A DNA stretch of 32,989 nucleotides. Source: Candidatus Poribacteria bacterium. Its GTDB lineage: Bacteria > Poribacteria > WGA-4E > WGA-3G. The position numbers were made by a program, and so were the translations under genes. Shown here piece by piece: positions 4,212-28,903 of this stretch; position 1 is the stretch's first letter, and every line of letters begins with the position of its first letter. The notes beneath the pieces are model-generated. The model worked only from the letters and a program-made list of their open reading frames with translations, was not told the origin of the DNA and ran no database searches. The stretch spans positions 1-32,989 of the forward strand of contig JAJECK010000026.1 of assembly GCA_022822085.1 (NCBI GenBank), written 5' to 3'.

Positions 4212-4283
4212 TGCCGGTGCGGAGAGTCGAACTCCGGACAGCACGATTATGAGTCGTGCGCTCTACCACTGAGCTACACCGGC
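4212..4283 (-). tRNA. tRNA with CAU anticodon (elongator Met, or Ile2)
   Basis: The 72-base cloverleaf has a 7-bp acceptor stem (GCCGGTG/CACCGGC), D stem GCTC/GAGC, anticodon stem CACGA/TCGTG with loop CTCATAA, and T stem CGGAG/CTCCG with loop TTCGACT. The discriminator base is A and CCA is not encoded. The G1-C72 pair excludes an initiator tRNA. Elongator Met is my first choice from the overall acceptor and D-arm pattern. The C-G and G-C pairs next to the anticodon loop resemble known Ile2 tRNAs, the substrate of TilS, so identity is unresolved. It is transcribed directly into tilS from a consensus promoter. Confidence 0.93.
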
Positions 4284-4567: not shown

Positions 4568-5809
4568 ATGAACATACACGATTTACAAGGCAAAACCGTC
4601 GGAGCAGCTGTCTCTGGTGGACTTGATAGTTGCACAATAACAAAGTGGTTAGTGGATAACGGTGTTAACGTAGTCTGCTTTACCGCAGACCTTGGGCAGC
4701 CCGATGAGCGCAACGTTGACGAAATTCGGGAGCGGATGTTGGCATGTGGTGCCAAAGAAGCAGTCATCGTTGACGCAAAGGATGCACTTGCTGAAGAAGG
4801 AATACGACTAATCCAATGTCAGGCGATGTATGAAGGCGGATATTGGAATACGACTGGCATTGCACGGCATGTTACTGTCAAAGCATTGTTGCCAGAAATG
4901 GAAAGTCGTGGCATCTCTATTTTAACGCATGGTGCCACTGGACGGGGTAATGACCAAGTCCGTTTCCAACTTGCTACCAATATGCTTAACCCTAGCTTCT
5001 CTGTTTACGCACCGTGGCGCGATGCGGAATTCCTTAGCAAGTTCGGTGGTCGGAAAGAGATGATAGATTTCTGCCAAGAACGGAAACTACCTATTACTGC
5101 TACACATGAAAAACCCTACTCTACGGACGCAAATTTGTTGGGGTTAACACATGAGGCTGGTAGGTTAGAATCATTGAAAACGCCAGCTGGTTTCATCACA
5201 CCAGGAATGGGTGTGCACCCTAAAGATGCCCCTGACGAAATAGAACACTTCACCGTTACTTATGCTCGTGGAACACCTATTGAAGTCAATGGTAGTCTCG
5301 GCACGCCGCTAATGAGTTTGTTAGAAGCAAATCGCATTGGCGGACGTAATGGAGTCGGTATCGGTATTCATACTGTTGAAAACCGTTTCGTTGGAATTAA
5401 AAGCCGTGGAGTCTATGAATCCCCAGGAATGGAACTACTTGGCACCTGCTACGAATATCTTTTACAATTAATTTTAGATAGACGTGCCAGAAAACTATAT
5501 GATGGTATTTCCTCGTATATTGCGGAACAAATATATCAAGGTTACTGGTTCGATTCCGCTACACATTCTATGTTAGCATCGATTGAACAGTTTACAAATT
5601 TAGCAAGCGGAACGATTACGGTTGCACTCTATAAAGGGAATGTTGCCTTTCATGCTGCTGGTGGTGTTCCACATTCGCTTTACTCTGAAGAAACTGCATC
5701 AATGGAAGATATCGGTGATTTCGATCATGCGGATTCGGAAGGATTTTTGGCAGTGCTGGGTGTCGGTGCCCGAGCTGCTGCTGTTGCTGGACAGACAGAG
5801 GAGTTATAA
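4568..5809 (+). CDS. argG: Argininosuccinate synthase
   Basis: The enzyme condenses citrulline and aspartate with ATP, the penultimate step of arginine synthesis, in the cytosol. The 413-aa protein opens with the ATP pyrophosphatase loop AAVSGGLDS (residues 13-21). LGQPDE, the GATGRGNDQVRF segment, EKPYSTDANLLGLTHEA and LEANRIGGRNGVG follow, all diagnostic. The LGQPDE, YWNTTGIAR and EANRIGGR features resemble the longer E. coli-type ArgG branch more than the AYSGGLDT branch. The start at 4568 is fixed by homology; a TATAAT lies seven bases upstream and no SD is present, which suggests a leaderless transcript. No other arginine gene is adjacent, and argG converges on the DprA-like gene. Confidence 0.95.
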   Translation: MNIHDLQGKTVGAAVSGGLDSCTITKWLVDNGVNVVCFTADLGQPDERNVDEIRERMLACGAKEAVIVDAKDALAEEGIRLIQCQAMYEGGYWNTTGIARHVTVKALLPEMESRGISILTHGATGRGNDQVRFQLATNMLNPSFSVYAPWRDAEFLSKFGGRKEMIDFCQERKLPITATHEKPYSTDANLLGLTHEAGRLESLKTPAGFITPGMGVHPKDAPDEIEHFTVTYARGTPIEVNGSLGTPLMSLLEANRIGGRNGVGIGIHTVENRFVGIKSRGVYESPGMELLGTCYEYLLQLILDRRARKLYDGISSYIAEQIYQGYWFDSATHSMLASIEQFTNLASGTITVALYKGNVAFHAAGGVPHSLYSEETASMEDIGDFDHADSEGFLAVLGVGARAAAVAGQTEEL

Positions 5810-5834: not shown

Positions 5835-6818
5835 TCACAAGCTAGCTATATATTTTTCTAATGTTAGATTCTGATTGTCAATCTGCTTTGAACCAGGGAC
5901 AGACTTCTTTGTATTTCTTGATATACATTCAACAATTTGTTCTATACCATTTTTACCGTCAAGGGGTGTTCCACCCAAATTTATCAAGGATGTATTACCA
6001 GCAAGTTGGCTATCAAGGTAATTGGAATCAAGAACAAATAGCGGTATATTCATATTAAGGGCGGTTTTGGCAGTGTTGAATGTTCCACTCATTTTACCTT
6101 GAGCATCTCGTTCAGGTCCTGATTCAATTACAACAACCGCTTTTGAGAGTGCACACACAAGTTTATTCCGAATCATCGCGTTGTATGCAACCCATTTGAC
6201 AGATGGGTCGAATTGCGACACAACCAGGACATCTTGCTTCCAATTGTATTCCTTGAATGCTTTTTTCTGATGCAATTCCTTAATCCCATAAGGTAGGACT
6301 ATTGTCGTTGTTCCCTCTGCTTCTAACGCACCTAAGTGCGCTGCAGAGTCTACGCCTTTTGCATATCCTGAAACAACATTGAATTCTGATCCCGCGAGAT
6401 CTCCAGCTAGTTTTTTCGCAATGTGTGTTCCTTTGTTTGATACATCCCTTGATCCTACAATAGCAATACTGTTGTCTGACTTAAGGAGTTTTTTTTGTCC
6501 TTTGACGAACAATATAGGTGAAGTTTCAAGTAGATGTATTGGGTAATCGGTATGACCTGGATAGATAATTTCGACTTTTAACTTTTTGAGTTGTTCATAC
6601 TCTTCCGCTATGTTCACTGTATCATCTTCATGAATCTTACCATTTAATAATCTTGCCAACTCAGGTAATTCTTTTGTGAGTTTACTCTGACTGCTCGGTA
6701 ACTTTTCAGGTTCAAGTTTTTGCGTTTCTAAAATTTTGGCAATGGATATGAGAAGTTTCGGTCCTATTCCAGGTGTTTTAAAGAGACGAAACCAGAAGTA
6801 ATCATTTGGTAACTGCAT
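5835..6818 (-). CDS. Divergent DprA/Smf-family (SLOG fold) protein
   Basis: DprA family proteins have a Rossmann-like SLOG domain; canonical DprA loads RecA on incoming single-stranded DNA. In this 327-aa protein residues 121-124 are VGSR, 150-161 SGYAKGVDSAAH, 217-219 RNK and 244-250 SGTFNTA, matching the four conserved DprA blocks. The spacing and text differ: there is no GG.LLSE segment, SQFDPSVKW replaces it, and the SGS loop is SGT. The N-terminal 60 residues include a GIGP helix-hairpin-helix-like segment. AAGGA precedes the ATG by seven bases. It follows a phosphoribosyltransferase gene after 32 bases in the same operon. This is more likely a specialised DprA-like paralogue (nucleotide signalling or defence) than the housekeeping DprA, but that is inference. 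Confidence 0.8.
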   Translation of the reverse strand: MQLPNDYFWFRLFKTPGIGPKLLISIAKILETQKLEPEKLPSSQSKLTKELPELARLLNGKIHEDDTVNIAEEYEQLKKLKVEIIYPGHTDYPIHLLETSPILFVKGQKKLLKSDNSIAIVGSRDVSNKGTHIAKKLAGDLAGSEFNVVSGYAKGVDSAAHLGALEAEGTTTIVLPYGIKELHQKKAFKEYNWKQDVLVVSQFDPSVKWVAYNAMIRNKLVCALSKAVVVIESGPERDAQGKMSGTFNTAKTALNMNIPLFVLDSNYLDSQLAGNTSLINLGGTPLDGKNGIEQIVECISRNTKKSVPGSKQIDNQNLTLEKYIASL

Positions 6819-6850
6819 TCTTGTATCCTTACAATCAGTGTAAATATATA

Positions 6851-7471
6851 TTAGAACAATATGTCCTCTTCGTATTTCCGTGACCGTGTTCGAGTTAGTG
6901 TTAGAACAAAGACAGATTTGACACCACCTTGGTCATATAGGACTTTGGTAACTTCAGTCAAAGTTGAACCCGAGTCATAAAGATCGTCAAACAACATTAC
7001 ACGACAATCTCTGTATTCTTGAGTTTGGTGGACAACGAAAGCACCTTGAATATTCTTTCGTTTCCTTTGTACATCAGTAAGACTTTTATGCTGTATCGTC
7101 TGTCTTGTTTTTGTTAAATAATCTGTTCTAACAGGTAGATTCAGGAGCTTTCCAATTTCATGTGCAATTTCGGTAACAGGTTGAAAAACCCTATTCGGAT
7201 CCGATGGTGGAATCGGAATAATCACCTTAAGATACGGAAGTATAAGATGTCCATCAACCGAAAATTGTTCTCGTACGTATTTTGCGGCCTCCCTTGCGAT
7301 TGGTTCAATTTTGCTTCTGTCATTTTGATATTTTACCTGATAAACCAATTCACCCATTTCCGTTCTATCCGTGTCATATCCTCCGACCAGTGGACGACTT
7401 GAGATAGAATGGATATCCAATGCCCTTCCAGCACGCCAATTTCCATTTATATGTTGTGAATTAATATTCAT
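6851..7471 (-). CDS. ComF-like phosphoribosyltransferase
   Basis: The 206-aa protein has the type I PRTase PRPP loop as FDDLYDSGST at residues 161-170. An upstream VIIPIPPSDPNRVFQPV segment (83-99) corresponds to the ComF VPVP...R.RGFNQ region, and LVYQVKYQ at 42-49 to the ComF ALKY element. The N-terminal zinc finger of ComF is absent. It is the first gene of a two-gene operon with a DprA-like gene, driven by its own promoter. ComF and DprA are both competence proteins, but the divergence of both partners suggests a dedicated pair. The substrate is unknown. The SD is weak. Confidence 0.8.
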   Translation of the reverse strand: MNINSQHINGNWRAGRALDIHSISSRPLVGGYDTDRTEMGELVYQVKYQNDRSKIEPIAREAAKYVREQFSVDGHLILPYLKVIIPIPPSDPNRVFQPVTEIAHEIGKLLNLPVRTDYLTKTRQTIQHKSLTDVQRKRKNIQGAFVVHQTQEYRDCRVMLFDDLYDSGSTLTEVTKVLYDQGGVKSVFVLTLTRTRSRKYEEDILF

Positions 7472-7526
7472 AACGTCTTATTTTTCAAAAAGTTTCCTAA
7501 AGATACTGTCAATATATCAAGTCAGT

Positions 7527-7555
7527 ATTGTATGTAGTAAAAGCATAATTGTAAA
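7527..7555 (-). promoter_or_regulatory. Promoter of the PRTase/DprA-like operon
   Basis: On the minus strand TTTACA (7555-7550) and TACAAT (7532-7527) are 17 bases apart. The predicted leader is about 50 bases. Confidence 0.5.
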
Positions 7556-7723: not shown

Positions 7724-9913
7724 CTATCTAAGTATAATAAATTTTCCGATATTTCTTGCAACCATATCTTCCTGCGTTGCTATAATTTGGTAAATATAGA
7801 TGCCGGGGGCAAGAGGATTTCCATTCTGGTTTGCGCCGTTCCAAAGAAACTTTCCTGAACCAACAACCCCTGAATGTGTCTCACCGTAGACCTTCTCTCC
7901 CTTAGTGGTAAAGAGATTTAAAGATACTGTTTCAGCCGATTGGGATATGGAAAGTTGATATGCAAAAGTCATACCTATCGCTGCAGGTCGGAACGGATTC
8001 GGGTAAACGCGGGTTTCTGCAATTGCAAATGGTTCTGGTTCGAGCTGTTCTACAGATAATCTATATGACTCAATACTGCTAAATCCTCCATCTGATGATA
8101 CTAATAGGTATAAAGTTTGTTGTATCGTAGGTTGGTATAGGATTTGATAGCCGAGTTGAGCAGGGGCTTTTTCTCCAATTGCTAATAATTCCCCGGTTGT
8201 TGAGAGGAGAGACAAGCGATAATTACTATCCTCTGGAATCTCTGTTAGCAAAACACGAAATGTTTTTGCAGCTGCAACTTGGACTTGATAAAAATCTTGT
8301 GTATCATCAGCATCGTATAGGAATGAGTAGTATGCTTGACTGTAAAAGATTGGAAATGCTGTGTCTATAGTGTTATTGGGTTCGTAGGTGTCGCCAAAGG
8401 ACACCAACATCTTCATGATTAACCCTTCAGGACCGATGTTTGTAATAGATATGCCAGAGGATCGTCCTTTATTATCACTACTGTTCGGTAGAGTGCCAGG
8501 TGTAAAAGCGGTTTGGTCGTCATCTGCAGAATAAGCTGCTCCTTCAGTGACAGTATTGATGTCAATATAGTTAGGGTCATCAGGACTGATACCGAAGTGT
8601 TCAGGGTCATTAGGATCTTCCAACCAAATTTGTCCACCAGCATCAAAACTTCCAGCACTACGTACATTGGTCTCATCAATGTGCCAAATGAGGATGCCTG
8701 ATTCGGGAAGATATGTATCAAAAGTCGCACCAGAGTCTTTATATCGGTTTTCAATGAGAAAAAACTCTCTGTTAAGAGCAGTATTTGGTAGTTGGAAGTC
8801 ATTACCAAAGGTTGTATGTGCATCGCGTGTAAGTGGAATGTCAATTTTGAAGAGTTTGTCGGTTTTGGGAGGTAGTTCAAAACTTGGAACTGATACCTCT
8901 CCAGATCGTGTGATGTTAACGGGTTCAATCCATCCGAGTCGTCCATTTTCGGGTCGCGCATCAAAATCCCATTTTAGGTATCCCATGATGTGACTTGGAG
9001 CTAGTCCGTTTCCAATATCGTCAACTATCGGACCTTGGAAGGGCCCAAATTGCCCCATCAATCCCCACTTGTGATCGCGAGCATCTGCAATGTTTAGTCC
9101 ATAGACATCCGGTGCTCCGAAGTCGTGGAAAAATTCATGGAAATAGATACCTAAGTGTGGTTTCTCAAAACCAGGTTCTTCACCGACAACGACTGCAGTA
9201 TCAACGCGAACACCATCAACAACGACATTAACGCTTGGTGTTAAAATTGACCAAATATCATCCTTTGCTTTTGACGTAGCTTCGTCATTACCAGCATGAA
9301 TTATGAAAACATGGTCAACGATCCCATCTTTATCACGGTCATACTTAGAAAAGTCAACTAATTCATCCACACCACGACATGCCTCTGCGACGAGTTCTCG
9401 GTAACGTTGCACAAATCTGCCAAATTCACCAGGATTTTCACCGTAATATGTCATCGGTTTTTTTGCACGGACCCATGAGTTTCCAGCAGGAAGGACACCA
9501 CCAGCGGGACCCGGTTGCACATCCATCTGTCCATAGGAGTTTTCACGGAAGTATGTTTTTAGTGAAACGCCTTTTTCAGCAAATAGGTATTCGTTGAATT
9601 CTGCACCTGTTCGTCTTCCGGGTTGATCGCTGAAATCAATTTTAATTGCCAATACATATTCAATACCATCAGGTTGGACTATGCTCTGTGGTTTCGCAAA
9701 GCAGCATCCATCCAGTGCTTTCAGATAATTTGATAGCTGCGATCCAGAACTATTTTCAGTATCAGGTTTTGGATTTATTTCACCTGTGACAGGATCGATG
9801 TCAAAATACAAGTAAGGACTTGGCGGAGCTGCGGAGGTAGATGGTGTCAGTATTAGGAGGGACACCAAACAGAAAAGCAGGAAAACAGAGAACTTCTTAA
9901 TCAAATTCGCCAC
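7724..9913 (-). CDS. Secreted M6-family (immune inhibitor A-like) metalloprotease
   Basis: A signal peptide with Lys-Lys, a long hydrophobic core and PSTSA is followed by an M6 peptidase domain. The zinc site HEFFHDFGAPD is at residues 259-269: His259 and His263 with Glu260, and Asp269 as the likely third ligand. DRDKDGIVD just upstream looks like a calcium loop. A PPC domain spans about 508-625 (DTYEPNNTIDTAFPI), and a FlgD-like or type IX-sorting-like domain spans 636-729 (VYPNPF...FLWNGANQNG...GIYIYQI). The start is uncertain. An ATG at 9949 has no SD and its first codons duplicate the end of the upstream gene out of frame; GTG 9913 has AGGA six bases upstream; TTG 9904 is also possible. 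It likely degrades external protein. It is probably cotranscribed with the zinc-ribbon gene whose end it overlaps or abuts. Confidence 0.88.
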   Translation of the reverse strand: MANLIKKFSVFLLFCLVSLLILTPSTSAAPPSPYLYFDIDPVTGEINPKPDTENSSGSQLSNYLKALDGCCFAKPQSIVQPDGIEYVLAIKIDFSDQPGRRTGAEFNEYLFAEKGVSLKTYFRENSYGQMDVQPGPAGGVLPAGNSWVRAKKPMTYYGENPGEFGRFVQRYRELVAEACRGVDELVDFSKYDRDKDGIVDHVFIIHAGNDEATSKAKDDIWSILTPSVNVVVDGVRVDTAVVVGEEPGFEKPHLGIYFHEFFHDFGAPDVYGLNIADARDHKWGLMGQFGPFQGPIVDDIGNGLAPSHIMGYLKWDFDARPENGRLGWIEPVNITRSGEVSVPSFELPPKTDKLFKIDIPLTRDAHTTFGNDFQLPNTALNREFFLIENRYKDSGATFDTYLPESGILIWHIDETNVRSAGSFDAGGQIWLEDPNDPEHFGISPDDPNYIDINTVTEGAAYSADDDQTAFTPGTLPNSSDNKGRSSGISITNIGPEGLIMKMLVSFGDTYEPNNTIDTAFPIFYSQAYYSFLYDADDTQDFYQVQVAAAKTFRVLLTEIPEDSNYRLSLLSTTGELLAIGEKAPAQLGYQILYQPTIQQTLYLLVSSDGGFSSIESYRLSVEQLEPEPFAIAETRVYPNPFRPAAIGMTFAYQLSISQSAETVSLNLFTTKGEKVYGETHSGVVGSGKFLWNGANQNGNPLAPGIYIYQIIATQEDMVARNIGKFIILR

Positions 9914-11466: not shown

Positions 11467-13533
11467 TTAACTGTTTGGGTTATTGGGCCGGTTAACAAGG
11501 TCAGCAAGGTATTCGGCGATTTTATCAGTTATCTGTTCAGCATCTACATCTGCAAAGTTAAAGAGTTCCTTTAACATAGGCGAAATCGCGCCTGTATCAA
11601 GCAACGCATTTGCGAGTCTTCCCATACTACTTCGGTTGATGCCGCCTTGTCCATCATTATTTCCCATATCAAGGATCTTGATACTATCGACTTTCTCTAC
11701 GGGACGCATGAGTTGTTCAACGATGTCTGGTGCTTCTTCAATCAGTTCAAGGATAGCTTCTTGTACGAGGACACGTTGTTCAGCGACATTTCGTGCTTCG
11801 TATTCAGCCATCTCACCTTGTGCTTTAGCACGTGCTTCGGACAACACCGCATCAGCGAGCCGTTCAATCGGTTGTGCTTGTGCTTCTGCGCCAATGATTG
11901 CGACATCGCGTTGCCATTCAGCTTCTTTTGTCTTTTCAGTTGCAGTTACATTAACTTCTGCTCCAACCCGTTCAGCCTCAGCCTCCAATTTTTCTTTTTC
12001 TGCCAGTGCTGTGATCTGCTGTTTGTTGGCGACATCTATTTTCCTATCTTCATCGGTGATGGCGACACGGAGTTCTTGGTTGATGCGGGATTGTTCAACC
12101 GTCAACATCTTGGCAATTTCAGTGAGTTCAACATATTTGTTTTGGTCAATCTGTGCGGTTTCAACGACAAGGTTCTTTTCAATCTCACGCTGCTGCACCT
12201 GTTGTTCTTGTGCTAACTTAGCAACTTGGACAGTCAATTCTCGTTCAACATCTCGCAACTGCACGCCCTCTTCTTGTGCAATCTTGGCTTTTTCAACGAA
12301 GAGTTCTTTTTCTATTTCACGAACTGCGATTTCTTGTTCCTGACTAATTTTCTCCAATTGAACAGTGAGATGTTGTTGTATTTCTGCGAGCTGGACGACT
12401 TTATTTTGCTCAATTTGCGCGGTTTCAACAACGACATTCTTCTCAATTTCGCGTTGTTCAACTTGTTGTTCTGTAGCGAATTTCTCGGTCTGTACAGCTA
12501 ACTCTTGTCCAATTTCTCTTAGCTGTACACCTTCTTCTTGAGCGATTCGGGCCCGTTCCACCTCAAGTTTCATCTCATATTCACGTTCTTGGATACTCTG
12601 ATCCATCTCATATTGGAATTTGATGGTGTCAGCTTCCCTGTCAGCGGCGTATATTGCGATATTCTTCTGTTGATCAGATTCCCCCCATGCCCTATCTTGT
12701 TCTTGTTCAAATTTCTGAAGATCTGCTTCAACATGTATTTTTACGATTGCGACTTCTTTTTCTTGTTCAATACGTTCTTTTTCGCGTTCGGCATCTGCTG
12801 TAATTTCGGTAATTGCCCGTATACCGACAGCATCAAATCGGTTGGTGGGATCTAATGTGCTTATCGGTGTTTGATCAACACGGACGATGGATACAGTATC
12901 AAGTGTAAGACCGTTATGTAGTTTTAGATCGCTTCCACAAGCCTCTTTCACATCATCAGCGAATTCCTGTCGTTTTTGTAACAGGTCTTGAATTTCACTT
13001 GCGGCAGCAACGCTTCTTAAAGCACCATCCAACATAGGTTCAATCAACTCACGGATTGTTTCTGGTGTCATTGATTTATCACCGAGTGCTTGTGCTGCTT
13101 TTAACACATCTATATTATCGTCATCATCAGGTGTAACCTTAAGATAGAAGACAACTTCCACATCTGCGCGGTTGAAATCGACTGTAATCAGGGAATCGGA
13201 TTGTTCACGGAGTACTTCAAGTCGCATAGTATTAAGTGAAATCTCTTTCACTTCATGGATAATCGTATTGACCCAGAGACCGCTTGTAATAACGATCTTT
13301 TCCTTTGCTCCCCCTGTTCTGACCAGTGCAATATCAGATTTTGGTTTCCGATAGCGTATAACAGAACCTATAAAAGCTGCTATCCCGGCAAGTAGAATAA
13401 TGGCAATAACCCCCATCCAACGCAAAGCAGCAGTTTGGTTATTGTCATCACCCTGAATCAGTATTTGATACGCGTAATAACCGATGACACTTGCAACAAG
13501 AATAAAAACAATTACAGCAATAATGAGACGCAT
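11467..13533 (-). CDS. Flotillin/YqiK-like membrane protein with a 22-residue repeat coiled coil
   Basis: Two N-terminal membrane segments (about 3-25 and 37-60) precede an SPFH/band-7 domain (about 66-240, SDIALVRTGGAKEKIVITSG...). A very long charged coiled coil follows, and a conserved flotillin-type C-terminus (VLVQEAILELIEEAPDIVEQL) is near 588-608. At 688 aa it is longer than E. coli YqiK (about 550). Residues 322-497 are eight tandem 22-residue units that themselves form two blocks of four. Flotillins assemble membrane microdomain scaffolds. GGAG lies seven bases before the ATG. The gene follows the beta-gamma-crystallin fusion after 37 bases and probably shares its promoter. Confidence 0.92.
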   Translation of the reverse strand: MRLIIAVIVFILVASVIGYYAYQILIQGDDNNQTAALRWMGVIAIILLAGIAAFIGSVIRYRKPKSDIALVRTGGAKEKIVITSGLWVNTIIHEVKEISLNTMRLEVLREQSDSLITVDFNRADVEVVFYLKVTPDDDDNIDVLKAAQALGDKSMTPETIRELIEPMLDGALRSVAAASEIQDLLQKRQEFADDVKEACGSDLKLHNGLTLDTVSIVRVDQTPISTLDPTNRFDAVGIRAITEITADAEREKERIEQEKEVAIVKIHVEADLQKFEQEQDRAWGESDQQKNIAIYAADREADTIKFQYEMDQSIQEREYEMKLEVERARIAQEEGVQLREIGQELAVQTEKFATEQQVEQREIEKNVVVETAQIEQNKVVQLAEIQQHLTVQLEKISQEQEIAVREIEKELFVEKAKIAQEEGVQLRDVERELTVQVAKLAQEQQVQQREIEKNLVVETAQIDQNKYVELTEIAKMLTVEQSRINQELRVAITDEDRKIDVANKQQITALAEKEKLEAEAERVGAEVNVTATEKTKEAEWQRDVAIIGAEAQAQPIERLADAVLSEARAKAQGEMAEYEARNVAEQRVLVQEAILELIEEAPDIVEQLMRPVEKVDSIKILDMGNNDGQGGINRSSMGRLANALLDTGAISPMLKELFNFADVDAEQITDKIAEYLADLVNRPNNPNS
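12043..12570 (-). repeat. Eight 66-bp (22-codon) tandem repeats inside the flotillin gene
   Basis: Units start at residues 322, 344, 366, 388, 410, 432, 454 and 476 and follow the pattern xLxVExAxIxQExxVxxREIEK. Units 1-4 and 5-8 correspond pairwise (units 1/5 share IAQEEGVQLR, 2/6 share EQQV.QREIEK, 3/7 share VVETAQI.QNK). An 88-residue (264-bp) block was therefore duplicated. A weaker ninth unit may precede at 300-321. Confidence 0.85.
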
Positions 13534-13570: not shown

Positions 13571-14989
13571 TTATGATTGAAACATAAGTTCAGTATTTTC
13601 GTTTGTCCTATAACGTCCTCTCAGAGGTTGGCGTGGAGATGTTTGCCACGCAAGGTTTGCTAAATAACAGAGACTATTTTCTATGAGAGGCTTTGCGACT
13701 GCTGTGCGATGTGCATCCCGCGTATCAATAGCAAATCCGACATAGTAACCTTCACCCCAGGGCAGCACAATACTGACAGCATCGCCATTATCTTCTCTGA
13801 CAGCCAATTTTCTGTAACTTGGGTCGTTTGTAACCCAATGGTCGTCAGTGACTAAATTGTCAACGTCAATCTTATGCGGCCAGGTAAACATACCTGTTCT
13901 ATTTCCGTCTTCAGTGATGTTTACATTTGAATCGTCTGAATTGGTGACGGTAATTGGATGACGGTCTACTGGCATCCAGTCTCCTCGCCAAACAGGTTCA
14001 GGATGATGCACGCCATCAGCCGGTACGATGTTGTTATCCATTGCGGATGCCCATACAATACCCCCTTGGCGGACAAATTCTTTGATGTCTTCATCAGCAT
14101 CTTCAACGAAATATTCTCCATCGTGCCCAGGTCCGTTCCAAGTAAACCAGATGATGTCGTAATTTGACAGTACAATGCTGGAGAGTTTTATAGCATTTTT
14201 AGGGTCGCCCCGGTTATCGGGATTGTCGTTTATTTTGACTGTCGTAAATTGAAATCTTAAACCTTCAAGATGCGCAAGGGACTCCAAAACAGCGGGTTCA
14301 CCTGTTAGATTGTCACTCACAACAACTAATACACGGAAAATACCTAAGGGCACTATTTTTATTGAGGAGATAATATCTGAAAAAGATTGTGAGTTTGGTA
14401 GTGCACGAAGATTCCTAATGTTATGTTGAAATTGCCGTGAGTCAAGGATTATATCAAACCTGCGTCCTTCAAAATTTACATGTTCGTATAAGATGATATG
14501 GCAACCATTAAAAGGAAAGTTAGGTCCGCGCTGAATACGTATAGAAGAGATAACATCATTCATGCCAACCTCAAACATTGAACTGACATCACGGAGAACA
14601 ACACTTCTGTTTCCGTTAAAATCTATGTCTCGAAATACTTCAATGATGATAGGGACTGCTCCATATTCCGGTGGAGTCGGGTGCGCAGCAGGACTAAAAC
14701 TTACAGACGATATTGCGTCACCAAAATTGTAAGGAATCTCATGAATATTTGGATAGAATCCCGGTGCTAAAACCAATCGTCTACCTGCAAAACTCGCGTG
14801 CTCATGAAAAATTGCTTTGTAGTTTGGAGACGCATTGAAACTCGGTCCCTTATATATCTTGATTGAAGATATTACATCTTGGGCACCAATTTCAATGGTA
14901 TTTGGAACGGAATCTATAAGTGTTATCTTACGTCCATGATAGTTGACATGTTCAAAAACTTCAACAACTAACCTCGGTCTGCTCGACAT
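13571..14989 (-). CDS. Double beta-gamma-crystallin protein fused to a ThuA/glutamine-amidotransferase-like domain
   Basis: The 472-aa protein has no signal peptide. Residues 1-215 hold four Greek-key motifs forming two beta-gamma-crystallin domains. Each begins with an aromatic/Gly-Arg strand (YHGRK, FAGRR, FNGNR, FEGRR) and ends with a calcium-type signature (QDVISS at 37-42, GDAISS 90-95, NDVISS 144-149, SDIISS 204-209). From about 218 a Rossmann-like domain follows (FRVLVVVSDN, YDIIWFTWNGPGHDGE, FVRQGGIVWASA), similar to ThuA-like or class I amidotransferase-like folds. I see no clear catalytic Cys. AAGGG precedes the ATG. It is the first gene of an operon with flotillin. A calcium-binding, stress-related or membrane-microdomain function is inference. 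Confidence 0.85.
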   Translation of the reverse strand: MSSRPRLVVEVFEHVNYHGRKITLIDSVPNTIEIGAQDVISSIKIYKGPSFNASPNYKAIFHEHASFAGRRLVLAPGFYPNIHEIPYNFGDAISSVSFSPAAHPTPPEYGAVPIIIEVFRDIDFNGNRSVVLRDVSSMFEVGMNDVISSIRIQRGPNFPFNGCHIILYEHVNFEGRRFDIILDSRQFQHNIRNLRALPNSQSFSDIISSIKIVPLGIFRVLVVVSDNLTGEPAVLESLAHLEGLRFQFTTVKINDNPDNRGDPKNAIKLSSIVLSNYDIIWFTWNGPGHDGEYFVEDADEDIKEFVRQGGIVWASAMDNNIVPADGVHHPEPVWRGDWMPVDRHPITVTNSDDSNVNITEDGNRTGMFTWPHKIDVDNLVTDDHWVTNDPSYRKLAVREDNGDAVSIVLPWGEGYYVGFAIDTRDAHRTAVAKPLIENSLCYLANLAWQTSPRQPLRGRYRTNENTELMFQS

Positions 14990-25946: not shown

Positions 25947-26675
25947 ATGCAAACGCAAAGAATCTGTCTCTGGTCGGGACCAAGAAACGTATCAACAGCA
26001 TTGATGTATGCCTTCGGACAACGAAGTGATACCGAAATCGTTGATGAACCCTTATACGCACATTACCTACATGTCACGGGGGCATTGCATCCAGGGCGAA
26101 AAGAGGTAATGGCATCTATGCCGGTAGACGGTAAAGAAGTCATTCGTGATGTTATCCTCGGACCTTGTGCGAAACCTGTTCTCTTCATGAAACAGATGGC
26201 ACACCACCTTGTTGATATTGACAGGTCTTTTATGCGTGAAACATATAATATATTACTGGTCCGCGACCCGAAAGAGATGCTGCCATCTTTAACAAAAGTT
26301 ATCGGTATTCCACAACTAAAGGATACAGGTTATAAATTACAAACTGAATTGTTATCAGAATTGCGCGAAGCAGGCCAATCCCCGCCAATATTGGATGCCC
26401 GGGAATTGTTGCTCGCACCGAAGGATGTATTAACTAAACTGTGTCGCCGATTAGATCTTTCATTTGAAGAAGAAATGTTGTCCTGGCAACGTGGTGGCCA
26501 TCCATCTGATGGGGTGTGGGCACCATATTGGTACCACAACGTACATCAGAGTGTCAGTTTCACACCATATCAACCGAAAATTGAACCGTTTCCAGATGAA
26601 TTAAACAGTGTCCTATCCGAGTGTTTACCGTATTATGAACTTCTACGTGCTGATGCAATATGTGGTAATTCGTGA
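25947..26675 (+). CDS. Sulfotransferase-like P-loop protein
   Basis: The 242-aa soluble protein begins with ICLWSGPRNVSTALMYAF, the 5'-phosphosulfate (PAPS) binding loop of the sulfotransferase family (SGPRNVST at 10-17). The 3'-phosphate element LLVRDPKEMLPSL is near 103-115. Homologues are sometimes labelled branched-chain aminotransferase-like, without evidence for that reaction. The acceptor is unknown. AAGGA precedes the ATG by six bases. The gene has its own promoter, and its stop overlaps a GTG of the next frame as GTGA; the downstream HtrA-TPR gene is probably in the same transcript. Confidence 0.8.
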   Translation: MQTQRICLWSGPRNVSTALMYAFGQRSDTEIVDEPLYAHYLHVTGALHPGRKEVMASMPVDGKEVIRDVILGPCAKPVLFMKQMAHHLVDIDRSFMRETYNILLVRDPKEMLPSLTKVIGIPQLKDTGYKLQTELLSELREAGQSPPILDARELLLAPKDVLTKLCRRLDLSFEEEMLSWQRGGHPSDGVWAPYWYHNVHQSVSFTPYQPKIEPFPDELNSVLSECLPYYELLRADAICGNS

Positions 26676-26719
26676 AAGCAACCGTCTTGCAGTTTTTTAT
26701 TGACGAAGAGGAAATAAAT

Positions 26720-28903
26720 ATGGATATGAAAATAGATGAAAAACTACACCAAATTGGAGAAGATACCTTACAGAATTCAGTCGTCCGTATTATGTGGCAA
26801 AAAACTGGCAAGAAAAAGGATGAAGATAATATCACGCCTCGCGGAAGTGGATTCTTTGTCGGTCAGAACTTAGTTGCTACCAACATTCATTGTATTGTGG
26901 ATAAAGAAATTGTGTTCACAGAACTTCTCAGTAAAAATTCAAGATATGCTGTTGAAGGTGTCGTGGCTTATGATATTGAAAATGATCTTGCAATATTAAA
27001 AGTTGATGGTAGTGCTGAACCTATACCACTTGGAAACAGTGATAGTGTTCAAGTCGGAGATGTTGTATGTGCGGTAGGTTTCCCTGGGGGTGAAGGTGGT
27101 GTCATTACTCAGGGCACTATCCATGAAATCAAAGAAAGCGACAAGCGGTTACAAATAGATAAGTATTTAAAACCTGGATATAGCGGTGGACCGGTAATCA
27201 ACAGTGATGGCGAGGTAATTGGTGTTGCTGCTAATATATTCATCGGACTTGCCTCATATATCGGTGAAGGGATGTCAGCTAATAGTCAGGCAATTCCAGT
27301 AAGTAGAGTTCAAAACTTACTATCAAGAACCCAAGAAGCGGAACTGATGGAGAAATGGAACAAAAATCCTCACATTCAAGGTTATGCAAAAGGCTTCATT
27401 GAAGGACAAACAAAACTGAAACAAGGAAAACTCAACGAGGCACTTGAATGTCTTAATGCTGCAATTGAAGTCAATCCAGATTTAGCGGAATTATACATTA
27501 ATAGAGCGGGATTAAAGATTTTGACGGATGAACCAGAAGCTGCAATTAAAGACTGTAATGCTGCCATAAAACTTAAACCTGACTTTGTTGAGGCATACCT
27601 CAACAGAGCTGGTGCAAACTTAACTTTAGAACAATACGATAAGGCAATTGCTGACTGTGATGTCGCTCTCAGTCTAATTCCTAATTTAGTTCAAGCTTAT
27701 GTTTGCAGAGCAACTGCAAAATCTGAAATCGGACAACATGAAGAAGCACTTGCTGATTTTGATGTCGCACTAAATTTTAACCCAGCTTCCGAGGAAATTT
27801 ATCTTTCACGAGCAAGTTTGAGATACGAACATAAAGATTATGATGGCGCAATAGAAGATTTTGACAAGCTTATTTCTATAAATCCTGAATTCAGTAATTT
27901 TTTCGGAGTTTACGCAAGCCGAGGACTTGCAAAATACTATCACAAAGACTATGAAGGTGCTATTAAAGACTATGATAATGTGATAGAAACCAGTCCAAAA
28001 GAGGCTGTAGGATACTATAATCGGGGTATGGCAAAGTATAAGATAGGCAGTTCTCATGCAAACAAAAGGAACAAAACTACATCTCGTAAATACTATAATG
28101 ACGCGATTGATGATTTTAATGAGGCTATCAAAATAGACCCTAAAGCAGATTATGTCTATTATGATCGTGGTCTTACAAAACGGCAACTCAGTGAATTCGA
28201 AGAAGCACTCAAAGACTTGGATATATTCATTGAACTTAATCCTAAACATTGTTGTGCATACTTCAATCGTGGACTTGTGAAACGAAATCTCGGTTCATCA
28301 AAATTAAAGAAAGGCGATATATTCGGTGGCAGAAAATTACTACAAGAGGCAATTGACGACTACACACAAGGCATTAAACTAAATCATCATAAATCAATAT
28401 CATACCATAACCGTGGTTATGCAAAGTATCGCCTTGGGAAATCTTATGCCGATCAGCGTAATATAAAGGAAGCACGGGGGCAATATCAGGAGTCCATTGA
28501 CGATTATACCGAAGCGATTAAGACAAACCCGAAATACACCTTGGCGTATGAACATAGAGTCTTGTCAAATTATTTGTTGGGAAAGTGTGAAGACGATTTG
28601 GGTAATTCAGATGCAGCTGCAAAACTTTATCGCGCGACAATTGCCGACAGTGATGAATACATTCGTTTAAGATCAAAGAAACTTAATGCCGACATCATTC
28701 ACAAACGCGGTGCCGCAAATGCTGCCCTTGGCGAATATGGACAGGCAGTTGAAGATTTCAATCATGCGATACAGATTAAACCGAAACACGCCTTATCCTA
28801 TTATGACCGTGGTATTGCAAAGCAAGCACTTGGGCAACACAAGGCAGCCGAAGACGACATGGCAAAAGCCAAAGAATTAGATCCTGATATTGATGCACAT
28901 TGA
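26720..28903 (+). CDS. HtrA-type serine protease fused to a long TPR array
   Basis: The 727-aa protein has no signal peptide. The N-terminal 190 residues form an S1C/HtrA protease domain with all triad positions: His57 in TNIHCIV, Asp89 in DIENDLAILKVD, and Ser155 in GYSGGP. From about 220 to the end there are roughly a dozen tetratricopeptide repeats (patterns such as AYVCRATAKSEIGQHEEALADFD), with no PDZ domain. Some repeats are lengthened by insertions (for example near 28060 and 28460). I chose the ATG at 26720 with GAGG eight bases upstream; a GTG at 26672 overlapping the previous stop would add 16 residues. The TPRs probably bind partners or substrates. A cytoplasmic location is suggested by the missing export signal. 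Confidence 0.85.
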   Translation: MDMKIDEKLHQIGEDTLQNSVVRIMWQKTGKKKDEDNITPRGSGFFVGQNLVATNIHCIVDKEIVFTELLSKNSRYAVEGVVAYDIENDLAILKVDGSAEPIPLGNSDSVQVGDVVCAVGFPGGEGGVITQGTIHEIKESDKRLQIDKYLKPGYSGGPVINSDGEVIGVAANIFIGLASYIGEGMSANSQAIPVSRVQNLLSRTQEAELMEKWNKNPHIQGYAKGFIEGQTKLKQGKLNEALECLNAAIEVNPDLAELYINRAGLKILTDEPEAAIKDCNAAIKLKPDFVEAYLNRAGANLTLEQYDKAIADCDVALSLIPNLVQAYVCRATAKSEIGQHEEALADFDVALNFNPASEEIYLSRASLRYEHKDYDGAIEDFDKLISINPEFSNFFGVYASRGLAKYYHKDYEGAIKDYDNVIETSPKEAVGYYNRGMAKYKIGSSHANKRNKTTSRKYYNDAIDDFNEAIKIDPKADYVYYDRGLTKRQLSEFEEALKDLDIFIELNPKHCCAYFNRGLVKRNLGSSKLKKGDIFGGRKLLQEAIDDYTQGIKLNHHKSISYHNRGYAKYRLGKSYADQRNIKEARGQYQESIDDYTEAIKTNPKYTLAYEHRVLSNYLLGKCEDDLGNSDAAAKLYRATIADSDEYIRLRSKKLNADIIHKRGAANAALGEYGQAVEDFNHAIQIKPKHALSYYDRGIAKQALGQHKAAEDDMAKAKELDPDIDAH

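What the first reader, a model, noticed from the sequence alone, without database searches (positions are those of the whole stretch)
5835..7555. Dedicated DprA-like plus phosphoribosyltransferase operon
A divergent SLOG/DprA protein and a ComF-like PRTase without zinc finger form a compact two-gene unit with its own promoter. Both are altered from their competence relatives. A nucleotide-binding SLOG protein paired with a PRPP-using enzyme suggests nucleotide-derived signalling or phage defence rather than plain DNA uptake. I cannot match it with certainty to a named system.
Basis: partly seen in the sequence, partly recalled or inferred. Interest (0 to 1): 0.6.

Follow-up and report, generated by a model that had tools for sequence, protein, structure and literature searches.

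The report
Toxin–antitoxin-like PRTase and DprA pair
Two neighbouring genes in a sponge-type bacterium (Candidatus Poribacteria) look like a self-poisoning enzyme and its DprA-like neutraliser, a distant relative of the known anti-phage toxin–antitoxin systems ShosTA, PsyrTA and RqlHI, and not part of the DNA-uptake machinery.

Summary
6851-7471(-) encodes a 206-aa ComF-like phosphoribosyltransferase (PRTase) without zinc ribbon. 5835-6818(-), 32 nt downstream, encodes a 327-aa DprA/SLOG protein without the DprA winged helix.

In trees the DprA falls in a fully supported Poribacteria clade of 46, apart from canonical dprA. The PRTase groups with RecQ-fused and plasmid PRTases, away from ComF. 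All 17 intact PRTase loci found in 85 genomes carry the DprA downstream on the same strand. The reverse fails: 23 full-length DprAs lack the PRTase yet evolve under purifying selection, and decayed or relic PRTases occur at five loci. No intact PRTase lacks a DprA at its locus. That one-way loss is what a toxin (PRTase) and antitoxin (DprA) would show, as demonstrated for RqlHI and ShosTA.

Verdict: a new variant of the ShosTA/PsyrTA/RqlHI kind, with a stand-alone PRTase toxin. Toxicity, neutralisation and phage defence are inferred, not shown. A promoter-like site exists but is no better than chance.

The parts
6851..7471 (-). Stand-alone ComF-like phosphoribosyltransferase, 206 aa; proposed toxin
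   Evidence: ORF; PsyrT C-terminal domain 4.6e-21, ShosT 2e-8, comF 3.9e-11 below cut-off; tree; dN/dS 0.175
7328..7471 (-). PRTase N-terminal family signature (GNWxxGxALDxHxxSS...YDTxRTExGELVYQVKY) in place of the ComF zinc ribbon
   Evidence: alignments; shared, with variation, by RecQ-fused, plasmid and prophage relatives; absent from ComF
7175..7222 (-). Putative pyrophosphate-loop region, IIPIPPSDPNRVFQPV (ComF has PLHxxRxRxRGFNQ here)
   Evidence: alignment; residue numbering
6962..7000 (-). PRPP-binding loop, VMLFDDLYDSGST, acidic residues intact
   Evidence: D162, D163, S167, G168, T170 invariant; lines up with the loop mutated in RqlH (DIVD663), which abolished most toxicity
6819..6850 (-). 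32-nt spacer between PRTase stop and dprA start; -11 to +49 nt across the 17 intact loci
5835..6818 (-). DprA-like SLOG protein, 327 aa; proposed antitoxin
   Evidence: PsyrA 3e-51, ShosA 1.9e-40; own clade 100/100; dN/dS 0.289
5973..6590 (-). DprA Rossmann (SLOG) domain, PF02481; no winged helix follows it
   Evidence: own dprA carries PF17782
7527..7555 (-). Promoter-like hexamers TTTACA-17-TACAAT upstream of the PRTase
   Evidence: not above chance expectation

Best explanation
A two-gene toxin-antitoxin-like module of the ShosTA/PsyrTA/RqlHI kind. The upstream gene makes a PRPP-using PRTase that, when free, harms the cell's nucleotide pool or DNA. The downstream DprA-like protein binds or counteracts it. 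When a phage or another DNA insult draws the DprA-like protein away or inactivates it, the PRTase is released and the infected cell stops growing or dies. Shown here: the genes, the conserved co-orientation, the separation from competence orthologues, the intact PRPP loop, and the one-way loss of the PRTase. Inferred from relatives: toxicity, neutralisation, the nucleotide/DNA target, and activation by phage.
For: (1) All 17 intact PRTase loci in 85 genomes of the phylum carry the DprA downstream on the same strand, spacing -11 to +49 nt. (2) Loss is one-way: 23 full-length DprA loci lack the PRTase; a PRTase relic remains in G016 and another in G023, where dprA is also truncated; the PRTase is frameshifted in G034 (dprA intact) and in G040 (dprA also broken), and truncated in G035; no intact PRTase lacks a DprA at its locus. 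(3) The solo DprAs stay under purifying selection (dN/dS 0.12-0.28). (4) The PRTase groups with RecQ-fused PRTases of the PsyrT/RqlH type and with plasmid PRTases, split from ComF by a 100/99 branch. (5) In relatives, mutating the PRPP loop of RqlH abolishes most toxicity and RqlI binds RqlH only when the PRTase domain is present (PMC4670107); DprA+PRTase of a P2-like phage protects against T7 and lambda (PMC9122126); ShosT acts on purine metabolism and ShosA counters it (Pu et al. 2025, as summarised in PMC12593503). (6) Plasmid and prophage relatives of the PRTase are followed by a second gene with a SLOG-like domain, in two cases beside CBASS genes.
Against: No experiment. The pair is not in a defence island: no PADLOC system was recognised among ten neighbouring genes scanned. 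PADLOC models do not discriminate on one gene: the genome's own comF scores PsyrT 6e-13 and its own dprA scores ShosA 3.8e-67. The DprA is not specifically close to the solved ShosA. The isolated PRTase domain of RqlH was not toxic on its own, and this PRTase stands alone. Some PRTase frameshifts could be MAG assembly errors.
Confidence: 0.75

Rival explanations
1. A DNA-repair or recombination helper pair: the DprA-like protein handles single-stranded DNA and the PRTase makes or salvages a nucleotide at the repair site, without toxicity.
For: DprA family and RqlH are tied to DNA processing; the solo DprAs persist under purifying selection, so they do something without the PRTase; RqlHI was first modelled as a DNA-modifying and resolving pair.
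Against: Solo DprA is common but solo PRTase was not found, which favours a dangerous PRTase; the distribution is patchy (17 of 85 genomes intact) and the chromosomal site differs between genomes, unlike housekeeping repair.
Confidence: 0.12
2. A nucleotide-signalling pair: the PRTase makes a nucleotide-derived signal that the SLOG domain senses, as SLOG domains sense signals in Thoeris ThsA.
For: SLOG domains bind nucleotide ligands in other systems (established knowledge); plasmid/prophage PRTases of this clade pair with minimal SLOG-like proteins that lack the rest of DprA, so the SLOG fold may be the shared functional part.
Against: No third effector is conserved beside the pair; a signal needs an output and none is visible; RqlI co-precipitates RqlH only when the PRTase domain is present, which favours direct inhibition.
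Confidence: 0.08
3. Displaced or duplicated competence genes (ordinary dprA and comF) that happen to lie together.
For: Both belong to the same superfamilies as DprA and ComF.
Against: Canonical dprA, comF and comEC exist elsewhere in the genome; both genes fall outside those clades with strong support; no winged helix, no zinc ribbon, altered pyrophosphate loop.
Confidence: 0.03

Closest known systems
RqlHI (E. coli) / PsyrTA
   Same: ComF-like PRTase encoded upstream of a DprA homologue in one operon; intact PRPP loop of the kind needed for RqlH toxicity; RecQ-PRTase + DprA of this type also occur in two genomes of the phylum (L115 in G015; L116 and L117 on separate contigs of G005)
   Different: No RecQ helicase: the window PRTase is stand-alone, 206 aa; its DprA forms a separate clade from the DprA beside RecQ-PRTase in G015
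ShosTA (E. coli P2-like phage P2_4C9, Pseudomonas Pf phage)
   Same: PRTase paired with a DprA-like antitoxin; the DprA shares the SLOG core with solved ShosA 9vzo/8zva
   Different: Those ShosT proteins carry an N-terminal HAD domain and in P2 the DprA gene comes first; the window PRTase aligns with them only over the PRPP loop
Plasmid and prophage PRTase + minimal SLOG pairs (apparently unnamed)
   Same: Stand-alone PRTase of the same clade with the same N-terminal signature, about 30-38% identical over most of its length, followed at once by a SLOG-like gene
   Different: Partner is a 173-286 aa SLOG-like protein, with a C-terminal HTH in Rhizobiales/Xanthomonas, and not a full DprA; homology to DprA is weak
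Competence DprA and ComF
   Same: Same superfamilies and core folds
   Different: Lacks the DprA winged helix and the ComF zinc ribbon; separate clades; canonical copies present elsewhere in the genome

Membership tests
ShosTA | PRTase gene adjacent to DprA-like gene | tested here: met
   conserved in 17 genomes
ShosTA | ShosT with HAD + PRTase domains, as in the P2 and Pf phage examples | tested here: not met
   206-aa PRTase only. Whether the first described ShosT has a HAD domain could not be checked (paper not held)
ShosTA | DprA groups with ShosA | tested here: not met
   Separate clade, (long branches make the deep order unsure)
PsyrTA / RqlHI | Toxin is a RecQ-like helicase fused to a PRTase domain | tested here: not met
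   No helicase; PsyrT model matched only over positions 537-687 of 689
PsyrTA / RqlHI | PRTase domain groups with RecQ-fused PRTases, not with ComF | tested here: met
   branch 100/99
PsyrTA / RqlHI | PRPP-loop acidic residues needed for toxicity are present | tested here: met
   FDDLYDSGST; mutant data in PMC4670107
PRTase/DprA toxin-antitoxin systems (general) | Toxin never kept without the antitoxin; antitoxin can be kept alone | tested here: met
   23 solo DprA, no intact solo PRTase, five decayed or relic PRTases
PRTase/DprA toxin-antitoxin systems (general) | PRTase toxic alone, neutralised by the DprA | not testable with these tools
   needs expression experiments
Anti-phage defence system | Protects against phage | not testable with these tools
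   needs a plaque assay; no defence-island context in the window
Competence dprA/comF | Orthologue of canonical dprA/comF (clade, winged helix, zinc ribbon) | tested here: not met

The most novel reading that the evidence does not exclude
The pair marks a broad, mostly unnamed PRTase-toxin family in which the SLOG fold itself is the neutraliser. The toxin is used bare (here, plasmids, prophages) or fused to interchangeable domains (WD40 propellers, RecQ, HAD). In one Poribacteria lineage the antitoxin has become a stand-alone, selected gene, possibly giving immunity against incoming copies of the toxin.
Probability: 0.3. Interest if true: 0.6.

Novelty: new variant of a known kind. Interest (0 to 1): 0.42.

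Why it matters
It extends PRTase/DprA toxin–antitoxin systems to an uncultured, sponge-associated phylum with a minimal, helicase-free and HAD-free toxin. It also supplies natural comparisons for an open question, what part of DprA neutralises the toxin: full DprA here, minimal SLOG-like proteins on plasmids and prophages, and solo DprAs retained after the toxin was lost.

Tried and rejected
PADLOC hits alone were rejected as proof, because the genome's own comF and dprA also match ShosT/PsyrT and ShosA/PsyrA models. A clean empty site could not be shown: in most congeners the upstream M6 peptidase and argG lie next to other conserved genes. An early impression that the M6 peptidase flanks the pair in the related genus g4 was wrong; that neighbour is a different protein cluster. 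A conserved third gene next to the pair or the solo DprAs was sought and not found; the frequent upstream 341-aa gene also occurs at paired loci and looks like plain synteny. The AlphaFold model of the DprA was too poor to use (pLDDT 39.6, two sequences). The PRTase model (pTM 0.71) matched PurF, HGPRT and H. pylori ComF, which only confirms the PRTase fold. The DprA profile found no relatives in viral contigs. The Sberro 2013 paper was not held and the primary ShosTA mechanism paper was not found; the latter is cited through a review.

Full report
What is there. On the minus strand, a 206-aa ComF-like phosphoribosyltransferase (7471→6851) is followed after 32 nt by a 327-aa DprA-like protein (6818→5835). 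The upstream neighbour is an M6-type peptidase ending at 7724, and argG converges from the other side, ending at 5809. The genome belongs to Candidatus Poribacteria: the closest match is the MAG chromosome OY282386.1. G046, placed in the same genus, has a contig of the same length, 5,337,261 bases, so it is probably the same record.

Not the competence genes. The genome holds three DprA-family genes. The one on contig C36 is canonical, 404 aa with helix-hairpin-helix and DprA winged helix. The one on C54 is a shorter third paralogue with no PRTase within the stretch examined. The third is the window gene, which lacks the winged helix. A separate zinc-ribbon comF lies on C63 and comEC is present. 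In a tree of 80 DprA proteins the window protein sits in a clade of 46 proteins of the phylum with 100/100 support on a long stem; canonical dprA (95/83) and the third paralogue (100/98) form clades of their own. In a tree of 40 PRTases, ComF is split by a 100/99 branch from a set that contains the window clade, RecQ-fused PRTases and plasmid PRTases.

Match to known systems. PADLOC's best hits are PsyrA (3e-51) and ShosA (1.9e-40) for the DprA, and PsyrT C-terminal domain (4.6e-21) and ShosT (2e-8) for the PRTase. These models are not specific for a single gene: the genome's own comF scores PsyrT 6e-13 and ShosT 1e-9, and its own dprA scores ShosA 3.8e-67. The assignment therefore rests on the pair, the trees and the loss pattern. 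In published work, DprA homologues are antitoxins in shosTA, psyrTA and rqlHI, and a P2 prophage DprA+PRTase pair protects against T7 and lambda (PMC9122126). In RqlHI the PRTase domain causes genotoxicity, loop mutants lose most of it, and RqlI binds only when that domain is present, although the isolated domain was not toxic (PMC4670107). ShosT is reported, via a review, to be a PRTase and pyrophosphatase that disturbs purine metabolism, countered by DNA-binding ShosA (PMC12593503).

Differences. ShosT-type proteins fetched here (P2_4C9 and Pf phages, and a Piscirickettsia plasmid) are HAD-PRTase fusions, and the window PRTase aligns with them only over the PRPP loop. PsyrT/RqlH has a RecQ helicase; the window PRTase does not. 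A RecQ-PRTase followed by a DprA does occur in G015 (L115), and in G005 a RecQ-PRTase (L116) and a short DprA (L117) sit on separate contigs. The window PRTase has an N-terminal signature GNWxxGxALDxHxxSS...YDTxRTExGELVYQVKY where ComF has its zinc ribbon, a changed pyrophosphate loop, and an intact PRPP loop FDDLYDSGST.

Pairing and one-way loss. In 85 genomes of the phylum, 17 loci hold an intact PRTase, each with the DprA downstream on the same strand, spaced -11 to +49 nt. Two genomes carry a PRTase fused to WD40 propellers: in G069 it is followed by the DprA at 49 nt, and in G029 the fusion lies 2.4 kb upstream of a second, stand-alone PRTase and its DprA. By contrast 23 loci hold a full-length DprA of the clade and no PRTase. 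A C-terminal PRTase relic sits directly before the DprA in G016; an N-terminal relic remains in G023, where dprA is also 5'-truncated. The PRTase is frameshifted in G034 with dprA intact, and frameshifted in G040 where dprA is broken too; it is truncated in G035. No intact PRTase of the clade lacked a DprA at its locus. Most solo DprAs form one lineage sitting at the same kind of site as some paired loci. Pairwise dN/dS is 0.12-0.28 for solo and 0.10-0.29 for paired DprA, and 0.08-0.21 for the PRTase, so the solo copies are maintained. This asymmetry is what a toxin and antitoxin predict. It does not prove toxicity, and some frameshifts may be assembly errors.

Wider family. Outside Poribacteria the nearest PRTases are on plasmids (Rhizobium, Agrobacterium, Xanthomonas, Klebsiella, Citrobacter, Acinetobacter, Listeria) and in four viral contigs. 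In the loci examined the next gene, overlapping or within about 15 nt, encodes a SLOG-like protein of 173-208 aa, or about 285 aa with a C-terminal HTH. In Rhizobium and Agrobacterium it lies near CBASS genes. The link of these small proteins to DprA is weak (Pfam E 1.4e-4 to 0.04 in four of seven tested; hhalign probability 18%), so the idea that the SLOG core is the common neutraliser is an inference.

Mechanism. Most likely the PRTase is a PRPP-dependent toxin acting on the nucleotide pool or DNA, held in check by the DprA-like protein, and released on phage attack or DNA stress. The genes, the pairing, the clades, the intact loop and the one-way loss are shown; toxicity, direct inhibition, the trigger and defence are inferred from relatives.

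Structure work. The PRTase model (pTM 0.71, mean pLDDT 62.6) matches PurF, HGPRT and H. pylori ComF, as expected for the fold. The DprA model was not usable; by sequence its nearest solved relatives are DprA 3uqz/3maj and then ShosA 9vzo/8zva.

Verdict. Interest is moderate: the kind is known, while the stand-alone toxin form, the retained solo antitoxins and the WD40 fusions add to it.

Noticed in passing
L077 7321-10506(-) in G069; L074 9764-12688(-) in G029: PRTases of this clade fused to long WD40 beta-propeller regions (1061 and 974 aa); in G069 followed by the DprA, in G029 separated from a PRTase-DprA pair by a TnpB-like gene.
   Followed up: partly
L122-L128 and L130 (plasmids), L197-L200 (viral contigs): PRTase of the same clade followed at once by a small SLOG-like gene, in Rhizobiales/Xanthomonas with a C-terminal HTH; looks like an unnamed plasmid/prophage toxin-antitoxin pair, near CBASS genes in two cases and next to integrase- or terminase-like genes in some viral contigs.
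   Followed up: partly
L082, L087, L089, L090, L092-L095, L097-L111: Solo DprAs of the window clade without a PRTase, kept under purifying selection; function unknown.
   Followed up: partly
L119 6128-7123(-) (G000 C54) and relatives L147, L149-L153, L155: A third DprA paralogue, HhH plus SLOG without winged helix, forms its own clade across several genera of the phylum.
   Followed up: partly
L115 3202-7261(+) in G015; L116 and L117 in G005: RecQ-helicase-PRTase fusion of the PsyrT/RqlH type; followed by a DprA in G015, on a separate contig from a short DprA in G005.
   Followed up: partly
window 26672-28903(+): Trypsin-like protease with a long run of TPR-like repeats (743 aa); the protease part matches the PADLOC RT-Protease_XI models (1.9e-22).
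   Followed up: no
window 13571-14989(-): 472-aa protein with two beta/gamma-crystallin stretches.
   Followed up: no
window 11467-13533(-): Flotillin-like protein with repeated segments (IAQEEGVQLR..., EQQVQQREIEKN...) in its coiled region.
   Followed up: no
window 4212-4283(-): A tRNA gene between tilS and argG (Rfam, 72 bits).
   Followed up: no
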